Assembly: GCA_905221615.1 (NCBI GenBank)
Contig: CAJNDT010006015.1
Location: forward strand, 98,922 to 162,921
Direction: 5' to 3'
Length of the DNA stretch: 64,000 nucleotides
From: Symbiodinium sp. CCMP2592
Lineage: Eukaryota; Sar; Dinophyceae; Suessiales; Symbiodiniaceae
Notes under the pieces: generated by a model
The model's database searches: none
Told to the model about the DNA's origin: nothing
The model's input: the letters and a program-made list of their open reading frames with translations, nothing else
Translations under genes and position numbers: made by a program
In this document: positions 6,611-64,000 of the stretch, piece after piece
Numbering within the stretch: the stretch's first letter is position 1
How the letters are laid out: each line of letters starts with the position of its first letter

Positions 6611-9600
6611 AATTCTCCTTGATGGCACTCCTTGCCTTGGTGGGCGGCTTCTTCGTGTGCTCCCGGGTTCAGATCTTATGAGCAGGCATGACTCTGTAAG
6701 AAGCTTCAAACGCAGGTACTGCGGCGACATCTCCGGAACAAAGACCGCCGGGTCTGAGACACAGCACTTGCACCTTGCTGTGATGCCGCTATGCACGCAG
6801 ATCCGATCTGGCACGGAGTTTGAAGCTTGGGGCTGCAAGCTGCAACCGTTTCTGCCATGGCTCAAGTGCCAATTAGCCAAAAGCTTACTGGGTTGTGGAA
6901 GTGGAAGCTGCAGCATGGCGCCCTCGTCGATCTGCGTCGCCGACTGTGTTCTCGGTAAGCCCCAGGACGAGAGCCCCCGAACACAAACGCCTACTTCCAC
7001 ACGCAGTATGCTGGAGTGCAGCGCAGGTAGTCAGGCTACCACCAGCAATGCCCCGAACCCTGTGATGCTGGGCATGAGCAGCACAGGACAGGAGCAAAAA
7101 CCCGCTTCATCAGAGTGCTGTGTTCCGACTCCCCGAGTTGCCGTGACCACGTCTCTGCCCGTGCTCCTGGGACGATCCCACGTGACTCAGACTCCACAGC
7201 GTCAAGATGGTGAAGCAGAAGCTTGTGCTCGTGCAGCTCGCGAAGCTTTCCTGGCAAGACAGGGGAGACGAGCCAGCAGATTCACAAACTTAGTCTAACT
7301 CGGCCGACAAGAGGGGCAGTTGCGGGTAAGTGCGATAAGTGAGCCGGATGCACAGACCCCGGCTCGGATTTAGCAGTGCATGCTTTCTTTCGGCCCCTTC
7401 TACAAGGAAATTACCTCAAGGGGCATCTAATTCGAGCAGGCTTCCTGGCCGTAGCGTGCAACAGTCACGGGTGGCTTGAGGTCATGGCCTGACTGGCCTA
7501 CTCACGGTGCGAAGACATGTCAGAGTGCCCAAACAAGCCTAAACAGCAGTTCGCCAGCGTCTGCAGCGTGTGCAGCCCAGCACACTGCCTGTGCAGGTCC
7601 TCTGGCATTCCGCAACTCATCGGCTTGCTCAACGGCTGCGATTTGAAGGGCGAGTTCACTTTCAGGATCGCTTCGAGTGCTTTCTGGAACATCAAGTCCC
7701 CCGGGGCGATTCGGGCGGAAGAAAGCTGTCGTGCAGTCTACCTTGCATCTTTCGGCCCGTATGTCAGCTTGCTATTATGTGCCTCCTTGCAGGCATCTGC
7801 TGGTAAAGTGGTTCGGCGTGTGTTTGGCAGTGGCTTCCGGCTTGGCCGTGGGTCCAGAGGGCCCTATGATTTTCATCGGCGCAGATCTCAGCTGCACGGC
7901 GTAGAGTTTCATCGGGCTCTGCCGTTTCCGCCGAGGTGCGAGCATTGGATACCTCTTCTCCAGGCTCCAGGGTCATCCGAATATTCAGTGTTGACATGCT
8001 GACTACCAGTAAAACAAATCGAGTGAAAGCGAAGTCTTCCTTGTTGGCGATGCTTCAATTCTGAGCCTTGCCTTGTGCAAGGTTGCCACAGAATCCCACT
8101 GTTTGGCGATTGCTGGGCACTCCGCCTGCAACAGTGGGTGCCGGCCCCAAACTGTTCTTCGTGGACAGCCCCTCACCACAGCTAGATGTGGCAGGTGACG
8201 ATGTGTTTACCCGTGACTACACATCGATTGGTGCTGCTTGCGGAATTGCTGCGGCGTTTCGAGCACCAATTGCCGGGTGCACGGCCAAACTCCGTGTGCG
8301 GATGTCCCCTTACATGTCATGTTTTCCTTGGCCTGCTTCCTCGGCCTCGGACGCTTTTCCTTCACATGATCCTCTGATCTCATGAGGGGTCCGGGTAGCT
8401 GCTCTAAGGCTGGCACCCTTTTCATCGTTGAGGAAGCAGCTTCCCATTTTAAGAAGGACCGGGACTTCCATCACCCAGCATGATGTCGCCCGAGTCCGCA
8501 CATTTCGTGAAGTAGGAGCAGATGGCCAACATCTTTTTTGGAGGCTCAGTTTTCCGAAGTGGTGTTTTCCAGGTAGGTTGTAATTTGCCAGGCCTTGCTG
8601 CTCTGGAGGCTCTTACTTTTCCCCCAATGCATCGGTTCCGCCCAGCCACACAGAGTTCTGTCAGGTCATCCTCCTAACAGGCGGTGCAGGAGCAGTTCTG
8701 GAATACAAGGCCCTCCTTTTGGTTCTCGCACTTGTTTCTTGCGATTCATGGTTTCATCCTGCAAGGTCCAAGTCGGCCCCGGCTGCAGTGACACACCCTA
8801 CTGGCAGTGCCCTCAGTTACTTGGCTCCTTCTTTCTGCACAGAGTGACCACGGAAGGACGATTCTCTTCTGCGTGGTCATCGGGCTGCTCTGCGGTGTCG
8901 TCGGCGCGGCCTTCAATGCATTGAACATTCAGGCAGCTCGGAAAAATTCACATACAGCCGTAATGCAGCCGAAATTGCCAGGTCATGGTGTGGCGCTCGC
9001 GATACTGCAGTGCCGCGAGGCTAGCATGTCCTTCCAGTCGAAGATCTGAGAGATGGGTTGTCTTTTTTGGTGATATCCCTCGGTCAGCCCTAGGCCTGCC
9101 CGACGTGCCATGGAGATCCTGATCCTGTGCCTTCTGAGTTCCACGGCGCGTGGTCCTGAAATGGCCCATGTGTGCCACCTTGGAAGGTTTGGGCGGTTTT
9201 TCGCTGAGGTGGCTGGGTGTTGCCACCTTGTTCGGCGAGCGGGAAGCTGCCTGGCTTTGTAAGGCCGCCTCAGAGCATGGCTCCTTTTCAGAAAACGTGA
9301 GGCCTCCTCCTCCACGCTCTTCGCTCAGAGCAACGGCTGCATTAAAGATGATTACAGAAATCAGGCCCGGGCATGCGCCTTCGTGCAGTAAAGCCGTGCA
9401 AACAGCTGCCTCTGTGTAGCTGTCGCCCAAGCCGTTCTCAAAGCCGTAACCTGATGTCCATGCGCCCTCAGATCATCAACGGCTCTGTGATTGAGCGTCA
9501 GGGACGGGTGCACGTTGCAGTCTCGGCTTCGACTGCCAAAATGGTGCCAGGGATCCACTCACTGCTCCGAGGTTCAACGTTATTTCCCAGCTCCGTGCTT

Positions 9601-12600
9601 GTATGGCAGGGGTCCCACGGGTGGCCTTAGGAACCGGCACGTGCAGAGACTTGGGACTGCTATGTTTTGCAGCATCCGCAGCTGCGATGAGACAACAACT
9701 CATCTAGTCTAGTATGCAGCTGAGGCGTCCAGTACGGGAAGATGTGCAACGAAGCGCCTTTGACAACACCAGTGGGATTCCGCGCTCACGTTGAGCTGAA
9801 AGCCTCATGCCTGCCTGACCTTGACATAGGTGCATGCTTTGGCTCCAAGCAATCCTTTCGCCAAGACTTGTGTCCAAGCAGCCACAGCCTCGGCATACTG
9901 TTCTCCTCCCGGAAACTCGTGGAAGCTGGGTAAGTAGTTCATGCTCTGGAGTCGTTGCGGGCTCTCGATAGTGGTCGGCTGCCTGGGCCATGGACAAAAC
10001 AGAGCCGTGCCTTTGAGAATGAGAAAGAGGACGTGGAACTAGATACTATGGATACAGTGATACTAGTAGCCCTTTGTTCGCCTTCATGAAAGCCTGTCGA
10101 AGTTCTCTCTCTTTGCTCCTGTCATTTCGCCTTGTGCTCATTGATTTTTGTTGTATGCATACGCACATGAATACGATCAAAACGTGTCAAAACCAACGGT
10201 GCATGCGGCGAGCTCTCGGCTCGACGGCCCTAGCCTTGAAGTTGTTTTGTGCCGAGATTGCAATGGCAATGTTGATCATGACGCACGTGTTGCATACAAC
10301 AGCAAAGAAAAAGTGTGGGAGCAAAGTGGTATTCGGTCGGCTTCGTGCAGCAGAGCAGAACGAGCAGCAGGAGCAGCAGGAGCAGCAGGAGCAGCAGGAG
10401 CAGGAGGAGGCGGGGATGGTGGTGGTGCTGGTGGTGCTGGTGGAAAAGGACACAGAGAGCAACACCAATTATGCTCGCAAGCCTCATGTTTTTGCTGCTG
10501 TTTGTACTGTTGTTTGTCGCTCGGTCGCCGGCACGCCTTTCGATAATCAGGTGACTACTCCGGACATGCAGAAGCTCACAGATTTCCAGGCAGGCGTCTC
10601 ACACACAACCAACTAAGCAATAGTCTGCCCAAGCTTTGGGCCTCTCCTCAGTCAGGACTACTGCTGCAGTTTTAGCAGCTTGCACGATTTGAAAGCAGGG
10701 AGTTTTTCCGTCCATACCTCAGGCAAATTGCAGTCAGAATGTTCGGTGACATGCTGAAGCGATTCTCGGGTTGAAGAGCAGGTGCCTGGCAACGCCTCCT
10801 GTCCGATTGACCTCGGAGAGTTTGCTCCGAGCCTGAAGAAGGGCCAGGAGACCTCCGGCCTTTCAGAGTCTCCCGACGAGCATTCCAGCCAGGCCCCCTG
10901 GACTGTACCGCTTGAAGGAGCAAGGCCAGGGCCCCTTAAACTGTGCACAGCTCTGCGCCGAGGTTTCAACTCGGTGGGCTTGCTCAGCTTAGTTCCTTTC
11001 AAAACGGCCTGCGAAGACCTGAGTCCAGTGTTGAGACTTTTTGGGCTAAGTAGCTTCGAAAAGGTTAGGCAGAGCAGGCCACTCCCTGTGGATTGCGGCA
11101 CAGAGGCCAAAATCTGTTTGCCCGTGGGATGCCGAACCTGGTCAGAGCCTGACTTGCTGTGCGGGAATGATGCGTGGTGCAGGCTTTTGCTTTTGATGAA
11201 AAGCCTGTGCGCAGCAAATGCCAGGCAGAGTGGCATGGAGGGTACGGTTGATCCCCGATTCTTGACCGCCCTTCGCCCCCCGTCAAGGCCGTCAAGTTCG
11301 CCTGACCGCCCGATGAATCCGAACCCGAAATCTTTACCTGTGCCATTCCGAACGCAAACCAAAACATCTTTCAGGCGTCTGTTCAGCGACCAACTCCACA
11401 CATGGCACTCCCGCAGCCGCAAATTTCCAGCAACGGCCAGAACATGCTCGGGTTAATTGCAGGGCTCGCAAGCCTTATTTGGGTGCTGGTGTTTCTATCA
11501 CGAAATGGGCGGGAGACACAGACACAGGTTGCCTGTAAACATGGGCAGCTTACTACTCGCAGCTCAAGATGAAGATGCCTCCTGGCATCTCGGTGGGCTC
11601 AGCATGACGCAGCATCCCAAGGTCACCATCGAAGCCATGGCAGCCTTTCTCGCCGGGCACTTTGCCTCCTCGTGGGCTGTCGTGTGTGTGCAAAGCACGA
11701 AGGTGCTGTTCTTCGTCTTGGCCGCGATCACTGCAGGGAGTTGGCCTCGGCTGGCTACTTCGTAGTTGAAGAGTGCGAGACACCTCGCATAAACGTTTGG
11801 TGTGTTAGTGGTCCGGAGTGCCGTGTATTTTTGTGGGCACCCAGGTCTGCCATTCCGTCCGGGACGCTCATGCCACAGATGGCCCGTGGCTCATTGCGCA
11901 TCCTCTGGTGCTGCCCACTTCCCGGCAAAAAGTTGCCTTGCAAGGTGATTGGAGGTCTGATTGGGCGGATCTTGGTGACACGGCCCAGCAGAAAGAGAGT
12001 GAGGGAGTGAGAGAGAGCGACAGGCACAGTCGGATTGAAGTGCTTTCATGAGGGGGAGCAGTTAGGCCCTGTGGAGAGAAGCGTCAGGAACAAAAGGCAG
12101 GGATCATGGTGCAAAGCGAAGTGTGACAAGGCCCGGGGAACCCTCTTATGTGTGATCACACCGAACCGGCGCACTGCCTTAGGGGGGGTTGCTCCTGTTT
12201 CCCTTTGTCTGAGTGTCCCCTAAGTCCGACAGAAAGAAGGAACAGAAGACAAAGAACGAAAGTAATAAAGAACGGAAGATTAAGCTTCAGAGAAGAAGTC
12301 ACGGGGCACCCTCTTGCCCGGGATGCTCCATGATGGTCCTCGCCCTGAACTCGCAGGGAGAAAGCTGAAATAATGTGAGAGAGTCTGTGTCTGTGTATAT
12401 GTGCGCAGTCCAGTGCGGAGCACATGCTGGGATGCCTTCGACCAACGACAGCAGTAAGGCGGTCGTCCTGATGAATATCCAATCAGCAACAATGCCCGGG
12501 ACAGGACTGATCAAGATTTTGCCAGGCTTGTCCACACACAGTCTGAGCATGGGTGCAGACCCTGGGCAGTGAGGCGCAAAGTCTATTGTGATCTGCAGGA

Positions 12601-14660
12601 ACGTCTTGGGCGCAGCCGCCGAAGGCTCAGTGGCAAGTGCTGCAAGGAGCAGGGAAAACAAAACCGGGGATGCATGCAGCACTGCCCTCCAGGTACACAG
12701 TGCTTTTCGGATCTGGAGGCTGCGGTAAAGAGTCAGAAGAAGGTCGAAGACCGCAAGTGCCAAGAGTTGAAGCGCTGAGGTGTGTTCCCAGATGGCTCAC
12801 CGGTGACTCTGGAGCCGAACGGTTTCCTGGATCCAGGGCCCTTGGCTCAGTGGTCGTTGCTTGGCCGCTTCCAGGCCGTCATGTACCTGGACAGGATCGC
12901 CGCATTGATGGGGGCTGCAGCCTTCCTCGGAGGGAGTGGGCGAGCCCGCGCCTTGGTCTTCTGGGGCGGGCTGGCGCTTGGACGGGTTGCTGGCATAAGG
13001 TCACTCTCTTCACCACCGTCATGATGGTCGAGATTACAGGCGATCCAGCAACCTTCCAGCATCAGTTAAGGTTACAACAGGCACTATAGGGTCGTAGCCC
13101 AGTTTGCTCTTGCAACAACTTGCTGCTGGTTGCTGCTAAACCACTCCTCAGGTCATGATTTTCCCTGTGGGTTTCTCCACGGTCTTTGCCGTGCTGGTGG
13201 GAAATCTGATCAACCACGGCCTGTACCACTCATTGATTGACGCTGGAAGCCAAGTGGTTTCGGTCCCTCGCGGGCTAAACCAGCGCTCAGGTAGATGGGA
13301 AAGGGGTGCAGCGCGATTTCGATGAGCTTGCGTCACAGTGAGCAGCTAGATTTTTGTTCCCTTGGCGCAGTGTTTTCTCGTGCTTCATCATGTATGTTTC
13401 AATCGGAAACCTGGTTTTGCTCATGACACATGAAGCATTGATCACTCCAAACTACTTACTGGTAGCTACTGAGGTCCAATCCACGCCGTATCTCCCGGAC
13501 ACGTGGCAAGCGGACCAGCTCCCGCCCGGGATTGTTGCCGGGAGCTTGGCTGCGCAACGCGTCCTCAGCTTGGTTTGTCATGGTCTGAAGACCGAAGCTT
13601 CAAGCGGAGCAGCGAAACCCTGCCCGTGTGGACACAGAAATTGAATTATGGTCGCCGGCATCCAACAAACAGTCGCATGCGTTTACTCCCAGGTGGGTGT
13701 GATACATGTTAATCAATCAGTGGGCAGACATGGGCTGCGGGCCTTCAGTATCGCTCACTCGGGAACAGTCCGGGGAGGTAGAAGTCTTCTGGGCAATGCT
13801 GAGAGGTTCGCGACATGATGCCGAAGAACAAACCGATTGAAATTAAGCTGGCTGGTGGACGGGAGGGCATCAAAGATGCCCTGAAAGGCTCATCTGCCGT
13901 TTTGGGTTGCTTCAGACTGCAGCGACTCTTTGTTACAGCGGAGAATCGAAGTGTCAGGCAACAATTTCTCCGGATTCCCTGTGGTCGATGCCAAGCGAGT
14001 CGTCCAGCACCCATCACCGCTGTAATTTCCTATGGCTGCTGGCGGTCTGTAGCAATCGAAACGTAGCCGCCCTCTAAGCACACAACCCTTTTCTTCAGGT
14101 CGTGGGAATGGTGGACCGGAAAGATCTGGAGGAAAGCCCTTGTTGCCTCATGTTGCATCCGTATGAGACTTGATCCGCTGGATATGTATCTGCAACCATG
14201 CCCTGAGAGAGCGCAGCTTAGGAGCTCTTGGACCAAGATGATGAGATCACGGCTGAGGAGCGTGGGCCTTAGCGAGGCGACTCATGTTGCCAGGCCGTAG
14301 AAATCGAAAGGCGCGACATGGGAATTTGGCTCGACGCTGACGGACCTGTGTCAACTCTTGCAATGCTGAGTCTGAAGCGCTGCTCCAGTTTGTATCCAGC
14401 CGGGAGCTCATCAGCCTCGAAGGTGAATCACCGATCTCTTTGTGAAAGACCTTGGGAACAATGGTCACATGAGGTTACTGTTCGGGAGAGCTTCCCGCTC
14501 CAAAGCGCCTACCAGCTCTTCAAGAGCATGGACTGTGTTGTCCTTGCCCACAGGTGCCCCTGCACTGTTGCCCCTTCGCCTCAGCAGGACATGAAAAATC
14601 TCGTGGTCGTGGATGACAATCACGCGCCACTTGCGGTGTCGCTGGCATGCGTTTCCCTCA
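6611..14660 (+). CDS. CLC family chloride/proton exchanger with tandem CBS domains (multi-exon)
   Basis: Exons in order rebuild a CLC transporter. 7597-7665 encodes SSGIPQLIGLLNG (anion-site helix D); 7793-7885 LLVKWFGVCLAVASGLAVG then PEGPM, holding the gating glutamate; 8195-8271 ends AACGIAAAFRAPI; 8409 to about 8456 AGTLFIVEEAASHF, with the proton-glutamate position filled; 8843 to about 8945 GLLCGVVGAAFNALNI; about 11690-11737 VLFFVLAAITAG; 11845-11881 AIPSGTLMPQM; 11945 on VIGGLIGRIL; about 12875-12943 ALMGAAAFLGGSGR; 13000-13047 VTLFTTVMMVEITGD; 13152 to about 13241 with GLYHSLID, the anion-site tyrosine. CBS1 lies at about 13930-13998 and 14099-14140 (FPVVDAKR + VVGMVDRKDLE), CBS2 at about 14473-14530 and 14588-14655 (QLFKSM + DMKNLVVVDD). 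Gating plus proton glutamates favour an exchanger over a channel. A hydrophobic stretch at 6611-6678 (LMALLALVGGFFV) may be an early helix. The N-terminus and final CBS strand are unresolved. Confidence 0.9.
9400..11600. other. Long repeat-bearing intron region within the CLC gene
   Basis: Between the CLC exon near 9329-9370 and the one near 11690 I see no convincing CLC segment, although some CLC exons of this part of the fold must lie here or be very divergent. The frame 10782-11456 is open for 224 codons but has no recognisable domain and sits where an intron is expected, so I do not call it. The frame 10074-10616 is interrupted by the GAGCAG repeat and looks spurious. Confidence 0.4.
10358..10440. 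repeat. GAGCAG/CAGGAG hexanucleotide tandem repeat
   Basis: An array of about seven GAGCAGCAG/GAGCAGGAG units lies at about 10358-10410 and grades into GGTGGTGCT-type repeats up to 10440. In one frame it reads as alternating Gln/Glu, in others as Ser/Arg or Ala/Gly, so all frames stay open. It lies between CLC exons and is therefore most likely intronic. Confidence 0.8.
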
Positions 14661-17010: not shown

Positions 17011-17022
17011 GCAAGTTTTGCC

Positions 17023-17400: not shown

Positions 17401-17601
17401 CCCGCATCGTATCGACTTAGTGGATGTGCACCTGTTTTCTGTCAGCACGGGGCTGAATCGGACCGTAGTTTCATCTTTAGTGCAGTCGCTGCATACGGAA
17501 GCTCCAGAGTATCTCAGATAGACTCGTGTGCCTGCTGCCTGTCGTGACCAAGTGTGTGCTGAAGACGATAATGTCCCAAAATGCACTTTTGGCATCCCGA
17601 G

Positions 17602-20600
17602 GATGTCTCCGTCAAGCTCTCGCTTCCTGAGCGAATTTTTGTGTTAATGGAAGAGCCTACATCGTCTTTCCTCGGTGTCATGGCAAGTGCCGCACCCCAA
17701 TTTTAGCTTTACATAACAGGTGCTTCTGCATTTGAGGGCTTGATGCTGTGGCTATGTAAACATACTCAGCATTGTGGCCGCGAGAACTAAGGTGCCCTCC
17801 TGAATGTCTTGATTTTTCTCTCGTGCGCGGCGTGGCTGTGAAGATAAGCTGATCCGCACTTCTGCCGTTACGAGCGGATCAGAGTACCGTGGAGTTTTCG
17901 GGTGGTCAAAGAGGGGATGAAGATTCATGCAGGATTGAGGAAACTGCGAGGGAACATGCCGACGGCATGTACGCATGGTTGTGCAAGCTTCGTTTGCAAC
18001 CGAGTAACAGTAGGTCAGTAGGCATTACTGTAATGTGAAGGCATGTGAACACTGCTAAGGCAGGATGCACGCACAGACTACGCTTCCCCTCCGCTTCTGC
18101 CACGCACTCTTTCACCATCTTTACCATCTTTCACCCTGGTGTGCTCACTGGCCCACTCCCTTAGTCACACACATGTTCGCGCCTGCTTCTATTGATGTAG
18201 ACCTCTTGTATTCTGGCCGCTACTCGTCGCCTGCACCATGTCAGCTTGCTTTCGTTGGCGCCTGTTACGTGAGTGCATATGTTGCGAATGGCCTCGTGTA
18301 CGGTACCTGGACCTACCATGCAGGTTTGCTTCATGATTGCAACCCTGCCGGAGATGAAAGAGACTCCGTGCGACGGGTGTGAGCCGGAGCAGAGGAGGCC
18401 TTCTTACGTCGTATACATATATATCTATACTCAGGCATGCATCATCCATCCATGCGTCCATCCATATGTCCGCCCGTCCATCCATCCATCCAGCCAGCCA
18501 GCCAGCCTCCATCCATCCATCCGTCCCTCCCTCCCTCCCTCCATCCATCCTTCCTTCCTGCCATGCCAGGGCAGGCCATGCCATGCCATGCCATGCATGC
18601 ATATACATGTATATATATATATATACACAAATGTACAATACCATCATAAATAAGTATAAATATCAAAAGACATATAAATGCAAATATATATATATATATG
18701 TGTGTGTGTATAAACATATGTGATGCATGGTGTTCTTGGTTGGCCCCAGCCCGGCTTTGGCGTGGAGCCTGCGGTCTTGCTAGGTTTGTTGATCGCTGGT
18801 CGTCTCAATTCTCCCAAGTTGTGTGTTGCTGCTGAGCAGTTAGCAGACTAGGGCCGGGCGGCAGTTTGTTCTACAGATGTATGATTGCAGCCGTTTGCTA
18901 GTAGTAATGTGATCGTTGTGGTGCTCGTTATGATGCTTCAGGATTTGGATGTTGCCCTTTTCTCCTTGCAAGCGGTGCACCCGTCCCGGCTCTCACGTGG
19001 TCCTCCCTCTACGCATATGTCGTGCTGCGGACAATTGCAGTGACGCCCGTCACCTCCGTCGTCCTCCATCCCTTTGGTTTGCATGCTTTTGTTCCGGTTC
19101 GCGGTGGCGATTCCATCTTCCGAAAACGATGACTGTCACCAGGACGCTGGGATACCATTGGGGAGTAGGGGCGGGACCCTAGACCCCATCCCCCCCGGCG
19201 CTGGCCCAGGTCCAAACGTGCCGACTCTTTGTGACTGTGTGCACTTCTCCCACGGCGGCTCCAAAACCGTTAACTGTCACGAGAATCTCGTCCCAAACGC
19301 ACCCGATCCTTGTGACTTGGACACTTACCAACCACGACATGAGAGTATTCAAGAATGCAGGCCTGTCACGACGTTCCCGACAGGCCCGGTTCCCGTGACA
19401 GTTGACCCAAGAAAGGATGATGATGATGATGATGATGATGGTGGCACCAACTCCCCCAAGCAGACGCCTGAGGCACGCCAGACCCCAAGCAGAAACACGA
19501 ACCACACCAAACAACTTCGCCCCTACCAGACCATACCAGGGGGGGGAACGCCAGACGCTTGACCATACGTACATACATATATATATATATATATATTTAT
19601 AATCTACACACACATAGATATTCTTTTATCGATTTCTCATTGAATCGAGTCGCAAGCGAAGCAACAGCCATGAAGGAGGTTCAACATTGCCAGAGACTGC
19701 CGCACCACGTTTTGTTCTTTGTGTCTCGATGCCTTCGACCCTGAGGGAGTTCCAAGCCTTCGAATCATTTTGTGTTGGGATCTTCGCGCTGGAGCTTCGT
19801 GGCAGCAAGTTGGATCCAATCTCACCAGGAACAGCATCGATCGACTGAGATATGCCATCTCAGGTATATCGTGAGGGTGTGCTCCGCGCCATTTACGAGA
19901 TCCGAACTCTTGCACTATGAGCAGTTTTTGGAGCATGTCACAGACAACCAGGTTCGGACAGTGATGGGGACCATGTAGGTGTCATGTCATAGCCATAGCC
20001 GTCTTTTCTGACGGCAGCCGCGGGAAAGTGAGTGATGCTTTTACTGGGACTGGCCATAGGCTGCTGCCAGATGTCAAGTGAAGCCGTCTGTCCAGGCCAA
20101 CTTTAGCCCTTCCCGCTTCGTTCGTTTCATGGTCTTTGTCATTCAGCCCATGAACCTGATCGACCTTTTCGAGACTTGGCTGGGTACTTCCGAAGCCTGA
20201 AATGAAAGTCGTCCCCTCGCATCTGCGTTTTCGCGTGTCCTTTGACCAAGGTAATCATTCCCTTTGTGGTTGAGTCGTCCTTGAGGATCACGACTGCAAA
20301 CTTCACGGTATTGCGTGTTCTGCGGCTGACGCGACTATTTCGACTGGTAAAACTGGGTAAATCCTTTGAAGTCCTGCAGATCATCGGCAGAGTCTTTCAC
20401 AAGTCCATTGCCATGTTTTGGGTTTTTGCTGTCAACTTTTCATTGGCACTTTGCTTCTCTGCTGCGACGATCTACTTTGTGGAGGGCGGTGAATGGGATG
20501 ACCAGATGAAGACCTACATGCGAACCGGGCATAACGGTGAAAGGTCTGAGACTCCTTTCCTGAGCATTCCACATTCCTTCTGGTGGGTCTTCGTGACCTT

Positions 20601-21135
20601 CACCACGGTTGGCCGCTGGCTCAGTTATTGTGCTGCGGAAGGGTTCTCTGCTGTTCTATGTCCGGCGCAGTGCCAGCGGGAGCGAATCGAAAGGGGGGGG
20701 CGTGTTCTGGATCTTTTGAGCTGAGGATACGGTGATGTCGTTCCGGAGACTTTCTTGGGGAAGCTGATCGGGGCGAGCAGCATGCTGGTTGGCATTTTCG
20801 TCTTGGCACTGCCTATCAGCGTAATCTCGACGACTTTTGGGGAAGTTTGGCACGAATGGAAGGAAGAGCTTCGCCTCGAGGCGCAATCCCGTGAGGAGGA
20901 CCTGAGAAGCGTTGAGCTCGCCCTTCAGATCATCGAAAACCGCACACACCTCACGATCGAGATCTACGATCACTCTGATCGTTACCCTCCAGAACTTCTG
21001 GGACACGTGCACTGGCGCACTCTCCCTCTGGACTCGCAGGAAACTGTCGAATGTCGCGATGATTCCTTTCCCATCAAGAGCCTGGGCTTGCGCAGATCAA
21101 CCAAACGCTGTTTTCAGCCACGGGTTATCCTTTAG
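17602..21135 (+). CDS. Voltage-gated K+ channel, Shaker/Kv type (six-TM, multi-exon)
   Basis: Exons rebuild a six-transmembrane K+ channel. 17602-17682 is the pre-S1 segment (LMEEPTSSFLGVM), ending at a GCAAGT donor. 18324 to about 18385 gives the end of S1 (VCFMIATLPEM). About 19735-19793 plus 19863 onward joins as FESFCVGIFALE + YIVRV (S2). About 20119-20170 plus 20251 joins as PMNLIDLF + VIIPFVVES (S3). The 20251-20611 exon holds S4 (TVLRVLRLTRLFRLVKLGK, a basic residue every third position), S5 and the pore helix. A GC-AG intron at 20612-20725 cuts the selectivity filter, which rejoins as TTVGYGD. The last exon has S6 (VGIFVLALPISVIS) and an acidic/coiled tail with a C2-like half-motif (LTIEIYDHSD). 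The filter predicts K+ selectivity. Part of S1 was not located, and the stop at 21133-21135 is provisional. Confidence 0.92.
18430..18720. repeat. Microsatellite cluster in a Kv intron (CATC, CCTC, CATG, TA, TG)
   Basis: A run of (CCAT)n/(CATC)n with CCAGCCAG and CCTCCCTC patches covers about 18433-18560, CCATG repeats lie near 18560-18600, and TA and TG dinucleotide runs cover 18603-18715. It lies between the S1 and S2 exons of the Kv gene. All open frames over it on both strands are repeat-coded. Confidence 0.85.
19416..19440. repeat. GAT trinucleotide repeat
   Basis: Eight consecutive GAT units sit in a Kv intron upstream of the S2 exon. The surrounding frame 19074-19562 would encode an Asp run followed by a Pro/Thr-rich tail; I treat it as non-coding because it lies between two parts of the same channel. 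A short TA microsatellite follows at about 19570-19600. Confidence 0.7.
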
Positions 21136-21139
21136 TTTT

Positions 21140-26314: not shown

Positions 26315-26354
<40 letters not shown>

Positions 26355-41600: not shown

Positions 41601-44600
41601 CGCATAAATCACTCATCCCTGCATACAGACCAGAGGTTTTCTAAAGAGAGATCCGACCGAAGCTCGCCAACCTTGGGTATATCAGGATCAGTGTACAAGT
41701 AAGTGAGTGGGTGAGTGAGTGAGCGAGTGTGCGTGTGCGTGTGCATGCGTGGATGCGGGTGCGTGCGTGCGCATGTGCGCGAGCGCTAGGCGAGGGAAGT
41801 ACGTTCCTAAAGCTTAGCTCGCGGGTGAAGGGTCGCAGCCTGGGGACCCAATATCCTGCTTATCGCTTGATTTTAGCGGCAAATCATGCAAATCCTAGAG
41901 CGAAGTGGATAGTGGGACTGTAAAGATCCTTAACTGCTGTAATGTCCTGCTACCGTCTGAGTTGGCTGATCTCTTGTGGATGATTCATGTCGCGCAATTC
42001 AAGCCGTGGGTGCCATGCCACATACTGAGACCTGATCCGGACTCAGGTCAACGATGCAGTTGCCATCGTATTATTTCGCGTCCTGAACAGAATCTTGGAC
42101 TGACTGTGTGGTCCAACAGGAGCTGTATACTAAGCCGAGAATTCGCCGTGGTTTTCTCGCACTGTTTCTTCTTTAAGGTTCCGAGAGTTTCGAGGACCTG
42201 AGCGTTGGCCAAGTGAGTGGTCGCGCGGGCCTTGAAGCGGCGGAGTGGGAGCTGGTGAATCGTGGTGTGTCTCCCAGGCATCGGATCCCAGACTGCCTTG
42301 CTGCTCTTCGGCTCTGTCGGGCTGGGTATCGCTCTGGGCTTTGTGCTCATGTGCCGTGGCTGCAGATCTGGGCACACCGTACCGAATGTCGTTGCGGATC
42401 TGCCCGCCATACGGCATGCTCGAGCGAGAGAGGATTCTTGTCCTGTCTTTTCGAGCTGTGGGTTTTCTGGGACTGAAGCCGCTGTCAAGTTGAAGTTAGA
42501 AGAAGGTCGCATGCTTTTTGGCCTCGGCCTTCAAACCGGTTGATCACTTCCACATGCAAGTGCTGGCCCCGGAAAGCACGTCATCTTCCTGCCCGGGGAT
42601 CTGACCATCAAGCCTGGGGAGAGAGAACAGAGAGAGAGCCTGTCCCAAGCCCCAAGCAAGGCAAAGCAGAAAGAGAGAGAGAGAGAGAGAGCTTTGGGCC
42701 AAGGGTCTCTCGAGGCCCTAGACCCCTCAGCAAGCAAGCAAGCAAGAGCGAGAGAGCGAGAGCGAGACCGAGAAAGCCAGCGCCGGATGCCTTCCGCCTG
42801 TGCTGAAGAGCGCTTGCGAATCCCACAATGCGGGCCCCGATCCTGTCGAGGCTGACTACTCGCTTCTGTCGTGCCAGCCTTAGAACCTCAACTTGGAACA
42901 TCAGCAGATTACAAGCCACTGAGTCGTACGGAAGGGAGCCATATGGCGACTGCGCTGCCCACTCTGTGATGAGGTTTGGCGGACCAGACCTCTCCTTGTG
43001 TACTGTTCGTGTTTGTGTCCAGCTTTTTCATCTACTGCTTTGCGGAGCGAGTGTGCCGTGTCTGCATGGAGCACCGCGGGTTGTTTTCTGTAAGCGAAGT
43101 TCTGCCCTAAAACACCTTGCAGACTTTGCCCCCAAGTCCAGAACCCTGCCCGAGGTGTTCGATGTCAGGGATTATCACCGTGCTGTTCGCTTCTATGTTT
43201 GCTAGCGCTTTCGCAAGGGAGCAGTTCTCCGCAGAGGCCACCATGTTCTGCACCTTGCCCTGTTCAGAAGTTGTAGCTAGTGGCCTGCGGCAAACATGAT
43301 GGGGCACACGCAACGCATGCAGAATCTCTGGAGACGGGTTGGCAGGCACATTGGTCGATCAAGTTCAAATCCGAGGTGCTTTTGCTCTGAAGCAGGCAGC
43401 CACTCTAGCCGACATGGCCACCTCCTTATGCAGGAAATGGCAGCAAACTCGCGGTTCCATTCGGTTAGGTTCAAGTGAACCGCTCCGTGGCGGTTCGATT
43501 CTTGTGCGGTTCGCGGTTCGGGATTGAGCGGTTCGTTGGGCACACCGTTTCGCCGGTTCGGCGGTTCGAGGATGAACCCCAACCTCCAGCACGAAGGGTG
43601 GTGTCCACAAAGAGATGCCAAACCAGGTACCTTTTTTTGTATTTGTCGTAAGTGGCAAAAGGACCGGCTTGGGTGTGGCCCACTTTTTGGTGGCTTTGCC
43701 CTATCCCATTTTTGCTTCCAGCATCCCCAGGCCCAAACCCCACGCTCGGAAGTTCAGGCAGCATTTCTAGGCCAGAACTGGGCCTGGCTAAAGTGATGAA
43801 CCACGTAGTTTCGGTGCTCTACGGCTCATCAGTTTGGAGTGGTCAGGCCATGGCCTATAGCACCAGCTGTTGAAAAGCAAAAAGCCTTCAATAGGCGGCC
43901 CCGGCGAATCCTTCACGGGGGTAGTGCAAAAGCCTGTTCAGCTGCCTGAAGATTCGGATGTTAAAAAGCGGTGCCATAAGTCATGTTGAATCATAAGGTA
44001 TTCAGTGTTTAGGTTGGCGCCCTCAAGTCCATGAAGAGCTTGCGGTTCTGGTTCGGTTTGTGGCGTAGTTGGGTTCGTTCTATTCGCGGTTCGTGCCAGT
44101 CCGGATCTTTGCGGTTGGCTTCGGTTCAACGGGCTTCCTGTAGCTAACACGTATCGGGGCGTCGCAACATTTGCCTGCAAAGGTCGTTTTCCTTTTCGTT
44201 GGCATCACGGCCGTGTACTGCGATCGCAGAGGTGGGACTTGCATCCTGCAAGCCATCCGACAATACCAGCTTCTGCACTCTAATTCCCTTGGGCCTCGGG
44301 TAAGTCGAGGCCTTGTCTTCGGAAGTCTCGTCATCGCCTTCTGCCTTCTCGGAAGAGCAGCTGCCGCCACATCCTCGGATGGTGCGCAGCCGTCGGGTGC
44401 ACAACTGTGGTATTTCGATCAGTGCGAGCGAAGGTGTTGCCGCTTGCACTGCTAACAAACGGTTGCAAGGCCGCGTGTGCTGAGTGGCGGTGCTTGTTGC
44501 TGCATCAACATCGGAGCAATTCTGCCTGCAGTCTGTGGCTGGCCACTCCTTGAGCTGGGAGAAGAGTCTAAGATTGAACTGGAAGAAGGCGCGATCTCAC

Positions 44601-45253
44601 CGCGGTCCCTGCAGAAAATCTTCCTATCTGGATTTGTGAATGTAGCCATGCCTCGTGTAGTGTGCAATGTCCTGCAGATCTTCATGATGTGGCACGCTGG
44701 CTTGCGTGGGGGCACCTTGGATTGAAGGCTGTGCATTCAAGTGACGGCGCATGGCTTGAGCGCCGCATTTGGACGATGCTTATGATAATGTACGAGCATG
44801 GAATGGCGAACAGCCGAAGAGCTAAATTACAATGACTTGCTGTGTTGCAAGCTTCGTCAGCTTTTGCAGTGTTCTTGTCAGCTGCTGTGTTCGAGATCTG
44901 CTCAGGAATAGCTTTGGTCCTTACGCTGGAGCTAGAGCCGTGGGTCGATGAGGGTTCACCTGGCACCAGGGATACCCTCCGCAATGCTACAATTCTGATC
45001 ATAGTTGCTTGCCTCAAAGTTGAACAGATTCTGCTTTCGCCGGCGGTCATGCGAAAGCTATTCTCCTTCACCTCAGGTCTTTTTTCTGCTCTTTTTCGGC
45101 GGCTTGGTGGCATGCTGCATGCGTGGACGAAGTGCAACCATGAACCGTAACAGCGTAGCGCAAACGGTTCTAGCATCTGACGCGGCATTGATCCGTCAAC
45201 TTGCGCATAGCCGAGGGGGCACAACCAAAGTGCTGCTGAAGCCAGAGGCTTAG
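38632..45253 (+). CDS. Na+/H+ exchanger, SLC9/NHE family (multi-exon)
   Basis: Candidate first exon from 38632 has a signal-like start (LRLALVVGLVLQLGAGAC). Later exons follow the SLC9 fold. About 38880-39031 TM (SASVMLALLVGNFLHVCE); 39225-39439 ISESSVIILVGFLLGLAL and PVIIFEAGWSMMHRDF; 39519 onward LTILTFAVLGTLISMVVV; about 40697-40748 ALISAVDPV; 40828-40899 VDPLLNIIVFGESV; 42047-42089 VNDAVAIVLFRVLN; 42178-42209 SSESFEDLSVGQ; 42278 on FGSVGLGIALGFVL; about 43169 on GIITVLFASMFASAFAR; 43375-43430 LKQAATLADMATSLC; 44183 on VVFLFVGITAV and LVFGSLVIAFCLLGRAA; up to 44711 QIFMMWHAGLRGG; 44906-45006 IALVLTLELEPWVDEG; 45077-45253 VFFLLFFGGLVACC and a short tail. The restored GESVVNDAVAIVLFR motif carries the Asn-Asp pair typical of electroneutral exchangers. 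At least six of its introns are GC-AG. The first-exon join and the exact tail are uncertain. Confidence 0.92.
39043..39088. repeat. CCCTAAA/CCCTGAA telomere-like repeats in an exchanger intron
   Basis: CCTCCCTAAACCCTGAAACAAAAAACCCTGAGCCCTGAACCC is a degenerate tract on the opposite strand sense to TTTAGGG. It lies within the GC-AG intron 39032-39224 of the Na+/H+ exchanger. Only one unit is perfect. Confidence 0.55.
40498..40650. repeat. CTAT tetranucleotide microsatellite in an exchanger intron
   Basis: (CTAT)n/(ATCT)n with interruptions, then a CATACATACAGG patch. It lies between the exchanger exons ending near 39655 and starting near 40697, so it is intronic. The Ile/Tyr/Ser/Leu-rich frames over it are artefacts. 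Confidence 0.88.
40900..42046 (+). other. Large exchanger intron (1147 nt, GC-AG) with several simple repeats
   Basis: The exon before ends GESV (GTT at 40897-40899) and the next begins VNDAVAIV (GTC at 42047-42049), so phase and motif define the intron. It starts GCGGCT and ends CAG. It contains a GAGAGAGA patch near 40965-41040, an AATAATAAT/AATAGC-rich tract at about 41400-41515 and a GTGAGTGAGCGAG/GCGTGCG tract at about 41700-41790. The frames open inside it show no domain. Confidence 0.8.
42625..42775. repeat. GAGA and AGCA repeats in an exchanger intron
   Basis: AGAGAGAGAG at about 42672-42692, AGCAAGCAAGCAAGC at 42728-42745 and GAGCGAGAGAGCGAGAGCGAG at 42745-42770. They lie between the exchanger exons near 42350 and 43169. 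Confidence 0.8.
43440..44135. repeat. Two GGTTCG-rich repeat clusters within one exchanger intron
   Basis: Cluster 1 (about 43447-43570) contains many copies of GCGGTTCG or CGGTTCG, including GGTTCGCGGTTCGGG and CGCCGGTTCGGCGGTTCG. Cluster 2 (about 44040-44130) repeats GCGGTTCTGGTTCGG, GGGTTCGTTC and CGCGGTTCGTGCC. Both lie between the exchanger exons ending near 43430 and starting at 44183. The units resemble a tRNA B-box (GGTTCGA), but no tRNA fold is present. Confidence 0.55.
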
Positions 45254-47700: not shown

Positions 47701-47717
47701 TTTTTGTAATTCATGCA

Positions 47718-49385: not shown

Positions 49386-49427
<42 letters not shown>

Positions 49428-49930: not shown

Positions 49931-49974
<44 letters not shown>

Positions 49975-52098: not shown

Positions 52099-54159
52099 GT
52101 TGCCGAATGGTGCTGTCTATGAAGGCATTGCAGTTCATGTCGCGCTCCTGCCAACTGAAGCTGTGCTTCACAACGACTGTTTTGCCAGGTCAGTGGGTTG
52201 GACCAGCAAGAGAAGGGTATGGGGCGCGAGCACACAGATTTCTGTGAGTGAAGCTGCATGACCAGTCGCGGAAAGCATTTCACCTTGGAAGCGGTTAAAC
52301 AATTGATTCAGGCCTCCTGCCATCATCCGTACTTGTACCGCGTTTGTTCAGTATCACCCCGTGCAGACCTACGACACACTACAAATAATAGGCCGAGGTT
52401 TTTCATGCAATTTCGTGTTTGCTTCACTGTCAATTTTCGCTGAGATACAAAAATGGCCCGATGGAGCTTCATACACCGGGCAGTGGGTGAAGGAGAGTCG
52501 CAACAGTTGAATGCACACGAAGGCAAACTTCGCGTTGACTTGGCAGGACAAAGCTCAGGGCATGGGGAAGTTTCACCATGCTGCAGGAGATTGGCACGCC
52601 CGGCCAGGATAAGAAAGCTGGAGCCTCCTGAAAGAGTGTGTGTTTTGCCAGGTACGAGGGCAACTTTCTCGATGACATGCAGCACGGCTACGGCGTTGCC
52701 ATGTATGCCGCTGACCAAACAGAGTCGGATCCCAGATGTAGTGGATTGATCTGTCTTCTCTAAGATCGATGGCTCCAAGTACACCGGGCAGTTTGCGTGC
52801 GACAAGCATCACGGAGAGGGAGTGGAGGCCCGGCCTCGCCTGCCTCGCCTGCCTTCGCATGGCTCCCAGGGGGAGCAGACAGGTATGGCCAGACGGAAGC
52901 CGCTTCCAGGGCAGCTATTTCCAAGGCATGAAGCACGGCAACTGCCCCGGCTGATTCTCTGACTGTCAGATGCTGCAACTTCCCTTCTGCTAGGGCTTGC
53001 CCATGATTAGTGGATCAGTCCATGCACAACCAGCAGAAAATAGAAGAAACTTTCACGGAGAGACCCAGGTCACGGTTTGTACCTGTCGGCATCTAAGGGA
53101 TGGCATGCTTGTACACTTGTTGCGGAGACAAGCTTGCACATGCCGCGGTTCACGCAGCAGCAAGGTGGCCAGATGGCTCGAAGTACGACGGTACTTTTGA
53201 GTCCAACAACATGTCGCAGACTTGGAGAGTGTGATCGGCAGAAAGCACTTGCAATCCATCGGAATGGAATAGACTTCATGCGTGGTGTCAGGAGCGGCAC
53301 TGGAACGTACAACTGGTCTGATGGGCGCGCTTATACTGGTCAGTCCTCGGCTCAGAACGTTGGAGCGCCTGGCCCCTGACAGCTCAGGGGGTGAGACCTC
53401 AACAGTTCCCGTGCTAAGGTGGGAGAGGAACACAATGCACGGCTTCAGACTGAGAAAGCTGCAAGTCCTATCCGGCCATATCATATCCAAGCTTAGCAGT
53501 CAGACAGCGCATGTAATCGCCAGCAAGACGAGTCAGTTCATGCACACGTGCTCAGGCAAGGGGTCGTTCAGCTATGGCGATGGTCGCAGCTACGAAGGCA
53601 AGGGGCGCTTGTTGGGAGTCGCTGGAAACGTCACGACTGTTGAATGTGCAACCTGTCGTGCATGCGCTGGGTTAGCACAGGCGACTTCTTCGAGGATGTC
53701 AAGCACGGCGCGGCTCTTTGCAGTCGGTCATGGCGGAGTGGGCAGTCTAATATGGCGATGGTGCGGATGTTGCTATGCCTTGTCGTGCCGCTGAGCGACT
53801 GTTCAAGGCACCGGTGTGTTCCGCTGGCCAGATGGAAGGACCCTACGAGCCCAGCTGTCACTGCAGCCCTTGCATTGCCGGAAGCCCCGGATCCTCACCA
53901 TGAGCAGCAGGAGCTACAACGGCGAATGGCGGAACGGAAAGCGTCATGGCCGTGGCAGGTGTGCCCGCGAACAGGCTCTCAAGGCTGCGCGCGCATCCTG
54001 AGATCATGACACATGCAGGTATACGGCAGCCAGCCACAGGACAAAGACTGGCTTGTTTGAGGCCTGACTGCCGCAGTTGAGGCATGCTGTGAGTGTCGAG
54101 TCAAGTCGACCAAGTACGGGGTGTTGCAGGACGGGAACCTGGTCAAGTGGGAGGACTGA
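52099..54159 (+). CDS. MORN-repeat protein built from very small exons
   Basis: About nine MORN repeats (xGxxYxGxWxxxxxHGxGxxxWPDG) appear when short exons are joined in phase. Exons: 52099-52124, 52189-52229, 52445-52486, 52547-52593, 52652-52709, 52765-52827, 52883-52937, 53069-53084, 53165-53215, 53292-53342, 53419-53441, 53556-53597, 53681-53707, 53808-53838, 53911-53958, 54019 onward, and a last exon ending GNLVKWED and stop at 54157-54159. Examples: NGAVYEG|QWVGPAREGYGA, WPDGASYTGQW|DKAQG, GDWYEGNFLDDMQHGYG, HG|HGLYL|WPDGSKYDG, YTGQ|WERNTMHG|KGSF, DGRS|YNGEWRNGKRHG. Thirteen of the fifteen resolved introns are under 140 nt (54-131 nt); the others are 215 nt (52230-52444) and 55-64 nt as listed by the exon gaps. 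MORN arrays bind membranes or scaffold partners, and in alveolates act in cytoskeleton and cell division. No kinase or other domain was found. Exons upstream of 52099 and the final join are unresolved. Confidence 0.92.
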
Positions 54160-57040: not shown

Positions 57041-57064
57041 AGGTTTCTTTCCACAACACTCCAC

Positions 57065-61750: not shown

Positions 61751-61759
61751 TGCAGAAAC

Positions 61760-61915
61760 ATGAGTGTCCGCATCGACCTTCCTGTTTCAAAGCCATACCT
61801 CCCTGCATCCGAGGAAGACATCAATCGATGTTTGCAGAGGTTGGAAGAGGAGGTCAAACAGGCTCGGAGCGCCACAGTAGCCTCTTGCACAGCAACGCAT
61901 TCGACAGCTTTTCAA
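61760..61915 (+). CDS. Coiled-coil-like exon
   Basis: The frame reads MSVRIDLPVSKPYLPASEED followed by INRCLQRLEEEVKQARSAT, a Pro-containing leader followed by an amphipathic helix. It is one of the more protein-like stretches near the end of the window and may belong to the N-terminal region of the ion channel gene downstream, or to a separate gene. No family assigned. Confidence 0.35.
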
Positions 61916-62129
61916 GAGAGCTCATGTCGGCAAAGGCCCTGCTAGGGCACTCGGTGACTCTCAGAACTTGTATTGTTGGTGTTGGTGGCTGTGGCAGCCT
62001 CTGCCCCGGTGGATGGACAAAGTCTTGCACCACTTGTCCCCTTCTTAACATTGGCCGTGTAGGCTGCGGGGCCGGATCTGTCCCAGTGGCCGGAATCTTG
62101 CACTGCTCAAGCAGTCCCAGCTGCCAGCT

Positions 62130-63000
62130 GCAATCGTTTGAAGTATGCGGATGCGTGCAAGGATGGTGCAGGATTCCGTCCATCCACCGACGGGCAGAAG
62201 CACTTTTGCGTCTCTTGCACTCCTTTCTACCAATGTCATGTCCAGAAACTGAAAACTGACAGTGCGTACCCACCCTTTTGGACCCAGGACACACAGCACA
62301 GCAATTTACTTTATCTATAGCCAACGCTACTGCTACAGTCACATTGTCGAAATGCTGGAAAACCAAACATTGTGCTCGACAATAGGAAGCTGACAAAGCC
62401 TGCATATTGCTCGAAATCGAGCAAATGTATACATGCTGAAAATGACAGCCAGCGCTCAGTCCACACCACAGTCAACACTACCGTCACCCAAGTTCTTCTC
62501 TTGAAACGAGTGAATTGTGCAATTTGCTGATTTTTCCTTGGTTCTGGTGGTGTTGCCTGTAGTGTTGACTGTCATTTTGCCTCCATTTGCGGCACCTTGG
62601 GCGTGCAAAGCTTCATCCCAGCAAAGTTAAAGCCGTCGAAGCCACCAAAGCGACTCAGAAGCAATGGCTAATAACTCAGGCTTGTAAGACATACAGGCAA
62701 CAATCCCCGCCCCCACGGCCGCAAGCGCCAGCGCCAGCACACTTGCCGCAGGGACATGTAGGACAATCTAGGAACAACCGCGACGGCGCCACAACGGCAC
62801 TTAGTCTTGCATCCACAACAGTCGCTTCGTAGCATGCGCGAGGCCATCTCCGATCGTGATCCGCATTCTCCACCGGATGCTAAAGGTGAGCATCAGATCC
62901 CGGGCTGTCAAGCTCCGTGTCGCCCCAACCATGTTCCCGTTGTGGTATGCTTGCTCTGCATCTTCCTTTTCAACCTTAGCTTGGGCTGAGGATCTCTTTG
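62130..63000 (+). CDS. Possible exons of unknown function upstream of the channel
   Basis: Coding-like pieces are 62138-62260 (ACKDGAGFRPSTDGQKHFCV) and 62590-62775 (RAKLHPSKVKAVEATKATQK and a Pro-rich tail). They show no domain. Between them lies sequence without a supportable frame. They could be part of the N-terminus of the channel gene. Confidence 0.25.
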
Positions 63001-63089
63001 CCGGGAGTAAGGCATCGGAGCGCAGATGCGGATGAGGAATGCGGAGTCGAAATTGCTTTGTGCTGCAATTCAGTGTAGGGATCTGTCAA

Positions 63090-64000
63090 CACAGATGCCG
63101 ATGATGGAGATCAGGACCACAAGCGATCCTTCGACGATTCAGTGCAAAAAGAAAGGTCTTTGGAGGATGAGCAGGTGATGCTATCAGAAGGCGATACTCC
63201 GTCACCAAAGGCCACTTGGCGATGGACGGATATCGGAGTTGGTGGAAGATCTGGCAAATAAGCCGAATGTCAGGGCCACAGGGTTTTTGAACCTTGTCCG
63301 CGTACAGTCTAAGGCTGATGATGCGGGAGCGCTTGTACCTTTCAAAACGCCGCGAGAAGTCTGCCTTGTGGATCCAAGCTGGACGAGCAAGCTGGTGTGG
63401 GATATTTACGTCATGTGCAGTTCTCAGATCAAGCAGTTCCGACATGGCGACATCATGTTCACTTGGCACTTCGAATTGCAGTATCAACTGCAACTGTTTC
63501 CTGCAATGCTGACAGGCTTGTTGTCCTGATGGATGCAATGGTGCTGCCGTTCCAGCTGTCGTTCAAGAATAGTGACTTGTCCTGCTGAAGCGTAGGGCAT
63601 CGTAGGGCGTAGCTATTGCCATGCCAAGCCACGCGTGGACTGTTCGAGTTGTGAGATTCTAAGAATGAATCCGAAAGCGTTTGAGGAGGTCAAATCGCGT
63701 GTAGTGCAATGTAGTGTCGAGTATCGCATCGGTCCGAAACCTGAATTGACGCAAGAAGGCAGGTAGCACAACCCCTTACAGCCCTTAGTCAATGGAAGGC
63801 TATGACCCAGATGGATTTGATGACTTTTGGTTTTGGCTCACAACGATGACCTTCAGTGCGGCTACCCTTCTGCAGTTGCGACTTGCATGCCAAACAGGTA
63901 AGTGACACTGTCTGCATGCAACATAGCCAAGGATATCCTCGCAAGCTTTAACACGGCCATCCCTCGTGGCGACGATGTTGATGTTGATGACGCCAAGGCA
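63090..64000 (+). CDS. Cyclic-nucleotide-gated/EAG-like cation channel, 5' part (truncated by window end)
   Basis: An acidic linker exon at about 63093-63175 (DADDGDQDHKRSFDDSVQ) precedes S1-S2 of a CNG/HCN/EAG-type channel. About 63240-63410 ends REVCLVDPSWTSKLVWDIYV, the pre-S1/S1 start (P-x-S-x-x-x-x-x-W-D). 63516 to about 63577 reads LVVLMDAMVLPFQLSF (rest of S1). 63799-63858 reads YDPDGFDDFWFWLTTMTFS, and 63932-64000 DILASFNTAIPRGDDVDVDD. The last two join across a GC-AG intron (63859-63931) into the S2 signature FW..T..F..DI...FNTA. This family forms voltage- or cyclic-nucleotide-sensitive K+/cation channels. S3-S6, pore and any cNMP-binding domain lie beyond the window, so ion selectivity and ligand cannot be told. 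Confidence 0.8.

What the first reader, a model, noticed from the sequence alone, without database searches (positions are those of the whole stretch)
7666..63931. Splice dialect dominated by GC-AG and GA-AG introns with an AG|G acceptor rule
Across six recognised genes, 36 introns were placed by restoring conserved motifs in phase: 24 begin GC, 7 GA and 5 GT. 34 of 36 have G as the first exon base. Clear cases: Kv filter TTVG|YGD (20612-20725, GC), NHE LRGG|IALV (44712-44905, GC), IFT54 RRAQ|EEEQ (31508-31732, GA), CLC SM|DMKN (14531-14587, GA). Non-GT donors are known in Symbiodiniaceae, but such a low share of GT within one window is striking. Because repeated bases at junctions allow sliding, some assignments could shift by one or two bases.
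Basis: partly seen in the sequence, partly recalled or inferred. Interest (0 to 1): 0.7.

Follow-up and report, generated by a model that had tools for sequence, protein, structure and literature searches.

The report
Coral-alga genes with non-GT introns
The introns in this stretch of a coral-symbiont (Symbiodinium) genome really do begin mostly with GC or GA rather than the usual GT and end AG before a G, but this is the intron style already known from its close relatives; what stays open is how the cell recognises starts that are so poorly marked.

Summary
I placed introns by a rule that ignores splice motifs: conserved protein blocks joined at the peptide length relatives dictate, listing every admissible cut. 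In 27 junctions of five genes (CLC, Kv, IFT54, NHE, MORN) all 27 have a G...AG cut (5.6 expected by chance) and 25 have G[A/C/T]...AG|G (1.2 expected). Donors: 18 GC, 7 GA, 2 GT; GT...AG is no commoner than chance (2 against 1.3). Exon +1 is G in 25 of 27. Assembly statistics fit Symbiodinium tridacnidorum CCMP2592. The pattern is the published Symbiodiniaceae one: S. microadriaticum has 26% GT-AG and 74% GC|GA-AG introns. Added here: 30 of 42 U1 gene copies were read and all have the standard 5' end, yet true donors pair with it at +2..+6 no better than nearby G's; so U1 genes are not recoded to match. No transcripts were available, and no control outside the window could be made because the genome search stayed unreachable for it.

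The parts
7666..7792 (+). CLC intron, GA-AG|G (C1)
   Evidence: gapless join to ClC-6/7; one G..AG cut of 14
8272..8408 (+). CLC intron, GC-AG|G (C2)
   Evidence: gapless join to ClC-6/7; one of 12 cuts
8965..9093 (+). CLC intron, GC-AG|G (C3)
   Evidence: length as in one ClC-7 sequence, gapless but weak (6.3 bits), with gaps against ClC-6; one G..AG of 55 cuts
11738..11844 (+). CLC intron, GA-AG|G (C4)
   Evidence: gapless to ClC-7 but weak (9.6 bits); one of 19 cuts
11882..11944 (+). CLC intron, GC-AG|G (C5)
   Evidence: gapless to ClC-7 but weak (same 9.6-bit stretch); one of 15 cuts
12944..12999 (+). CLC intron, GC-AG|G (C6)
   Evidence: gapless to ClC-7 (38.1 bits); one of 17 cuts
13048..13151 (+). 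CLC intron, GC-AG|G (C7)
   Evidence: gapless to ClC-7; one of 14 cuts
13242..13473 (+). CLC intron, GC-AG|G (C8)
   Evidence: gapless to ClC-7; one G..AG of 14 cuts
14531..14587 (+). CLC intron in the CBS domain, GA-AG|G (C9); in frame, so retention cannot be excluded
20171..20250 (+). Kv intron, GA-AG|G (K2)
   Evidence: join gapless to Kv3.1; one of 11 cuts
20612..20725 (+). Kv selectivity-filter intron TTVG|YGD, GC-AG|G (K1)
   Evidence: join gapless to Kv3.1; one of 5 cuts
30693..30762 (+). IFT54 intron PPFR|FLHD, GC-AG|G (F1)
   Evidence: gapless to IFT54 CH domain; one of 5 cuts
30938..31027 (+). IFT54 intron, GC-AG|G (F2)
   Evidence: gapless to IFT54; one G..AG of 13 cuts
31508..31732 (+).
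39443..39518 (+). NHE intron, GA-AG|G (N0)
   Evidence: join gapless to NHE; one of 11 cuts
40749..40827 (+). NHE intron DPV|ATLA, GC-AG|G (N2)
   Evidence: gapless to NHE1; one of 8 cuts, none in the tighter first run
40900..42046 (+). NHE intron GESV|VNDAV, GC-AG|G (N3)
   Evidence: gapless to NHE1; one of 9 cuts
44712..44905 (+). NHE intron LRG(G)|IALV, GC-AG|G (N1)
   Evidence: gapless but very weak alignment to NHE1 (0.3 bits); one of 6 cuts
52493..52546 (+). MORN intron, GA-AG|G (Ma)
   Evidence: MORN repeat spacing
52594..52651 (+). MORN intron, GC-AG|G (Mb)
   Evidence: MORN repeat spacing
52710..52764 (+). MORN intron, GC-AG|A (Mc), exception to AG|G
   Evidence: MORN repeat spacing
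52828..52882 (+). MORN intron, GC-AG|G (Md); alternative GG-AG|A at 52824-52878
   Evidence: MORN repeat spacing
52950..53160 (+). MORN intron, GC-AG|C (Me), exception to AG|G
   Evidence: MORN repeat spacing
53213..53291 (+). MORN intron, GT-AG|G (Mf); alternative GC-AG|C at 53216-53294 gives the same protein
   Evidence: MORN repeat spacing
53343..53418 (+). MORN intron, GT-AG|G (M1); alternative GC-AG|A at 53350-53425
   Evidence: MORN repeat spacing
53442..53555 (+). MORN intron, GC-AG|G (M2)
   Evidence: MORN repeat spacing; none in the tighter first run
53598..53680 (+). MORN intron, GC-AG|G (Mg)
   Evidence: MORN repeat spacing
53839..53910 (+). MORN intron, GA-AG|G (M4)
   Evidence: MORN repeat spacing

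Best explanation
These are ordinary nuclear introns of a Symbiodinium, most probably S. tridacnidorum CCMP2592, removed by the major (U2-type) spliceosome, which in this family tolerates C, A or T after the first G of the intron. Shown here: intron borders inferred from protein homology; near-absence of GT; G as first exon base; U1, U2, U4 and U5 genes present, with standard recognition sequences in U1, U2 and U5. Inferred: the donor is not chosen by pairing of intron bases +2 to +6 with U1. The acceptor side carries more signal (AG plus the following G), so the acceptor and the exon borders, perhaps held by the standard U5 loop, probably fix the intron first, and a suitable G-H (H = not G) at the end of the exon then serves as donor. 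How likely: about 0.93 that the introns are as placed and belong to the known Symbiodiniaceae type; about 0.4 for the acceptor-led recognition model.
For: Placement by length: 27 of 27 G...AG and 25 of 27 G[ACT]...AG|G against 5.64 and 1.20 by chance; GC...AG 20 against 1.89, GA...AG 7 against 1.39, GT...AG 2 against 1.33. Joins gapless against solved homologs for 16 of the 27, four of these (C3, C4, C5, N1) in stretches that score only 0.3 to 9.6 bits; the spliced MORN protein has 6 MORN stretches, 96.9 bits, against at most 17.7 bits in unspliced frames. Species: G000 is 1,098,105,373 bp and its contig C1, the longest I saw, is 4,009,728 bp, against 1,103,301,044 bp and a longest scaffold of 4.01 Mb for CCMP2592 (PMC8045281 Table 1, passages read). 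Published pattern. U1: 42 copies over Rfam's cut-off; all 30 fetched carry AAACUUACCUGG; U2 GUAGUA and U5 GCCUUUUAC present in those loci; tandem unit of about 2.1 kb with U2-U4-U5-U1 in the four loci scanned. Summed column information about 3.8 bits at the donor and 7.0 at the acceptor side (my sum; +1 G and the AG were selection criteria, so those columns are full by construction; the unselected exon +1 G alone gives 1.46 bits, donor +2 0.75).
Against: No transcript was available, so every border is inferred. Templates were chosen by me after reading the sequence, not by a blinded procedure, and the cut rule was widened once (17 of 19, 19 of 19). If the protein length may differ by up to two residues, a GT...AG cut exists in 10 of 27 junctions (GC 23, GA 18). 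The exon side of donors does resemble the U1 consensus slightly (-3..-1: 1.11 against 0.78 matches, P=0.02; whole -3..+6: 3.44 against 3.01, P=0.03), so U1 pairing through the exon end is not excluded. U6 could not be read.
Confidence: 0.93

Rival explanations
1. The introns are really canonical GT-AG introns at slightly different places, and the GC/GA borders come from misplacing exon ends.
For: With up to two residues of length change a GT...AG cut is available in 10 of 27 junctions.
Against: At the homolog-dictated length GT...AG occurs in 2 of 27 against 1.33 by chance, while GC...AG occurs in 20 against 1.89. The Kv filter join, two NHE joins (N2, N3) and both IFT54 joins are gapless in well-scoring alignments to solved structures.
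Confidence: 0.03
2. Some placed introns are retained, in-frame coding insertions (best candidate the 57-nt CLC stretch 14531-14587).
For: It is a multiple of three and stop-free, and GAC is repeated at both ends.
Against: Kept in, it abolishes the CBS match that appears without it (itself below Pfam's cut-off). It fits the same G...AG|G rule.
Confidence: 0.05
3. This window (or this species) has a donor usage clearly different from other Symbiodinium, with GT nearly lost.
For: 2/27 against 26% in S. microadriaticum, P=0.016; GT...AG not above chance.
Against: Introns within a gene are not independent and the window was picked for being striking.
Confidence: 0.2
4. The introns are recent introner insertions whose target-site repeats create the AG|G pattern.
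For: Introners are reported for dinoflagellates (PMC11453091 section 12, read). Every intron starting G before an exon starting G has a 1-nt repeat.
Against: None of the 19 introns tested has a second copy (blastn E 1e-3) in the window or the 14 fetched tiles L002-L015, about 197 kb in all, and exact inverted repeats between their ends do not exceed 6 nt. The 8 introns added later were not tested, and a whole-genome copy search was not made.
Confidence: 0.05
5. The genome encodes a U1 recoded to match GC/GA donors.
For: None found.
Against: The 30 U1 copies read, of 42 found, all carry the standard 5' end. A search for variant U1 genes did not complete.
Confidence: 0.03

Closest known systems
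Introns of Symbiodinium microadriaticum (PMC5177918, PMC7789003; passages read)
   Same: GC listed first among donors, then GT and GA; 73.95% GC|GA-AG; AG acceptor
   Different: GT share 26% there, 2/27 (mine) or 5/36 (reader) here; median intron 231 nt there, 80 nt in my set of 27, which is small and biased to recognisable exons
Introns of Breviolum (Symbiodinium) minutum (PMC4083563 section 25, read)
   Same: GC and GA besides GT, G after AG, weak 5' splice site, snRNA gene cluster
   Different: GT about 48% there (PMC7789003); that paper puts all five snRNAs in one cluster, while the units scanned here hold U1, U2, U4 and U5 but no U6 match
sPCP gene introns of Symbiodinium clades A and B, proven by cDNA (PMC4201569, passages read)
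   Same: 5' consensus MWG|gy and 3' consensus sag|GY: G first in intron and exon, no G at either second base
   Different: three introns only; no GA donor in that consensus

Membership tests
Symbiodiniaceae GC/GA/GT-AG introns | G at intron +1 with C, A or T at +2, GT in the minority | tested here: met
   18 GC, 7 GA, 2 GT of 27
Symbiodiniaceae GC/GA/GT-AG introns | AG acceptor followed by G | tested here: met
   25 of 27
Symbiodiniaceae GC/GA/GT-AG introns | source organism belongs to Symbiodiniaceae | tested here: met
Symbiodiniaceae GC/GA/GT-AG introns | borders shown by transcripts | not testable with these tools
   no cDNA or RNA reads held
U2-type (major) spliceosomal introns | U1, U2, U4, U5 genes present, standard recognition sequences in U1, U2, U5 | tested here: met
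U2-type (major) spliceosomal introns | donor complementary to the U1 5' end at +2..+6 | tested here: not met
   1.33 against 1.23 matches at other G's nearby, P=0.23; duplex energy P=0.32; n=27, limited power. The published Symbiodiniaceae introns share this weakness
U2-type (major) spliceosomal introns | U6 ACAGAGA box and Prp8 | not tested
   searches not answered
Introner-derived introns | many near-identical copies, terminal inverted repeats | tested here: inconclusive
   neither seen, but on 19 of 27 introns and about 197 kb only

The most novel reading that the evidence does not exclude
In this lineage the second intron base is read as 'anything but G, C best' by something other than ordinary pairing with U1: for example a U1 whose adenosine facing +2 is changed to inosine after transcription (inosine accepts C, A and U but not G, as at the tRNA wobble position; recalled), or a protein or U6 contact. 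The second exon base after the acceptor shows the same lack of G (0 of 27 at both places), so one reader may check both G-H steps.
Probability: 0.08. Interest if true: 0.75.

Novelty: already known. Interest (0 to 1): 0.27.

Why it matters
It confirms by a cDNA-free route that a gene finder tied to GT-AG would fail on nearly every intron placed in these genes. Because the U1, U2 and U5 genes read look standard, the puzzle moves from 'has the machinery been recoded?' to 'how does standard machinery find donors carrying only about 4 bits of signal?', which PMC4201569 states as open (passage) and which sequencing U1 RNA can test.

Tried and rejected
An unsupervised gene-finding HMM, meant to learn donor usage without homology, degenerated because coding states absorbed non-coding sequence, and a Viterbi pass with preset signals gave implausible models; neither is used. 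Reading stop-masked + strand frames of 7600-64000 against Pfam showed Kv and IFT54 exons above Pfam's cut-offs and CLC and MORN exons only below them; NHE was missed, and the few other matches had E of 0.1 or more. Kv against the PDB at two stricter E-value limits returned nothing; the alignment came at 1e-17. The random tiles gave no usable out-of-window control: ten candidate segments had no match over Pfam's cut-off. Introner signatures: none seen. Exon +2 lacking G is post hoc (one of about 35 columns looked at) and is reported as noticed, not as a result. Donor figures for S. tridacnidorum itself are probably in the supplement of PMC8045281, which I could not open. The junction Mh was dropped before the count because its join held a stop. 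One search was a failed script, repeated with a changed decoy scheme.
Full report
What was claimed. Only four introns were given with coordinates. All four have the stated bases at both ends.

Where the window comes from. The window's own genome is held unnamed: 1,098,105,373 bases in 5383 contigs, the window being C5153:98922-162921; of the contigs whose length I saw, C1 is the longest with 4,009,728 bases. Symbiodinium tridacnidorum CCMP2592 is listed with 1,103,301,044 bp, 6245 scaffolds and a longest scaffold of 4.01 Mb (PMC8045281 Table 1, passages read). I take the species to be this one, as an inference from these statistics.

Independent test. To avoid assuming any splice motif, I chose pairs of conserved protein blocks on either side of an intron and required the joined protein to have the length seen in relatives. 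All cuts meeting this (321 in 27 junctions) were listed, and only then were the bases at the borders looked at. Relatives: ClC-6/7, NHE, IFT54, Kv3.1, each gapless over the join. This covers 16 of 27 junctions (C1-C8, K1, K2, F1, F2, N0-N3). Four of them lie in weakly scoring stretches: C3 (6.3 bits, and with gaps against ClC-6), C4 and C5 (9.6 bits) and N1 (0.3 bits). Ten junctions rest on the spacing of MORN repeats (consensus recalled; the joined protein, which covers nine of the ten joins, scores 96.9 bits with six MORN stretches, against at most 17.7 bits in unspliced frames). One (C9) rests on a CBS domain that Pfam sees only weakly. I chose the templates while reading the sequence, so the placement is blind to motif by rule, not by blinding of the analyst. 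The rule was also widened once: with tight anchors 17 of 19 junctions had a G...AG cut, and when cuts were allowed to fall inside residues that stay the same, 19 of 19 had.

Result. All 27 junctions have a G...AG cut; displaced decoys give 5.64. G[ACT]...AG|G: 25 against 1.20. GC...AG: 20 against 1.89. GA...AG: 7 against 1.39. GT...AG: 2 against 1.33. Cuts beginning with C, A or T before an AG are fewer than chance (2, 2, 3 against 5.2, 4.3, 4.7). Counting one cut per junction (AG|G preferred in the three junctions with two): 18 GC, 7 GA, 2 GT; exon +1 is G in 25, A in one, C in one. If the length may change by two residues either way the test loses sharpness: GT...AG 10, GA...AG 18, GC...AG 23 of 27.

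Is it unusual? GC and GA donors beside GT, and G after the acceptor AG, were described for B. minutum (PMC4083563 section 25, read). S. microadriaticum has donors listed as GC/GT/GA (PMC5177918 table, passage), with 26% GT-AG and 73.95% GC|GA-AG in 1,023,342 introns (PMC7789003 Table 1, passage). A review gives 25-74% for GC|GA in the family (PMC11453091 section 12, read). Three introns proven by cDNA have the consensus MWG|gy and sag|GY (PMC4201569, passages). So the window is an ordinary, perhaps slightly GT-poor, sample of a known intron style.

How it may work. The genome has 42 U1 genes above Rfam's cut-off, many spaced 2136 bp apart; the four loci scanned hold U2, U4 and U5 beside U1. 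All 30 U1 copies I could read begin AAACUUACCUGG, the standard donor-pairing sequence with A facing intron +2. The U2 genes keep GUAGUA and the U5 genes GCCUUUUAC. That dinoflagellate snRNAs are well conserved is already reported in reviews (PMC5029490 and PMC12787238, passages); what I add is the U1 5' end in this genome set beside its introns. No U6 match was found in the loci scanned, and the genome-wide U6 search did not complete. True donors match the U1 consensus at +2..+6 no better than other G's within 100 nt (1.33 against 1.23, P=0.23), and duplex energy does not separate them (P=0.32); the exon side -3..-1 does slightly (P=0.02), and so does the whole -3..+6 (P=0.03). Summed column information is about 3.8 bits at the donor and 7.0 at the acceptor side (my sum); donor +1 and the AG were selection criteria, so those columns are full by construction. 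I infer that the acceptor AG|G and the exon borders carry most of the recognition, in introns that are short here (median 80 nt), and that +2 is loosely read as not-G with C preferred. That the machinery's adaptation to variable junctions is unknown is stated in PMC4201569. The listings of my literature searches showed no paper that by its title tests U1 pairing in Symbiodiniaceae, but most subscription papers are not in the library.

The 57-nt CLC intron is in frame and stop-free; it is probably an intron but is not a clear case. The IFT54 RRAQ|EEEQ join cannot be fixed by any alignment I have. The Kv filter example is sound; the NHE LRGG example has a single G...AG cut of six but only a very weak alignment behind its length.

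Verdict. Observation confirmed; the phenomenon is already known; a modest open question about donor recognition is sharpened by the unaltered U1 genes.

Noticed in passing
window 851-2560 +: A 570-aa open frame without introns carries a near-complete ABC1 atypical kinase domain (Pfam E 5.7e-64, profile 1-243 of 244), in contrast to the intron-dense genes beside it; possibly a retrocopy, but no spliced-leader relict was found in the window at up to 3 mismatches (one 12-mer match at chance level).
   Followed up: partly
the 27 introns; exon base +2 after the acceptor: The second base of the downstream exon is never G (T 12, C 8, A 7), mirroring the lack of G at intron +2; the cDNA-proven consensus sag|GY (PMC4201569) agrees. 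Post hoc.
   Followed up: no
L016-L045 (G000 contigs C2929, C3660, C3790 and others): U1 genes lie in tandem arrays, many 2136 bp apart; the four loci scanned hold U2, U4, U5 and U1 but no U6 match, whereas all five are reported clustered in B. minutum.
   Followed up: partly
L010 1633-2577 -: Long array of near-identical ankyrin-like repeats (about 33 aa, judged by eye) in one open frame, seen in a genome tile.
   Followed up: no
L003 (G000:C5153:162922-172921): Half of this tile just downstream of the window reads N (5000 bases).
   Followed up: no
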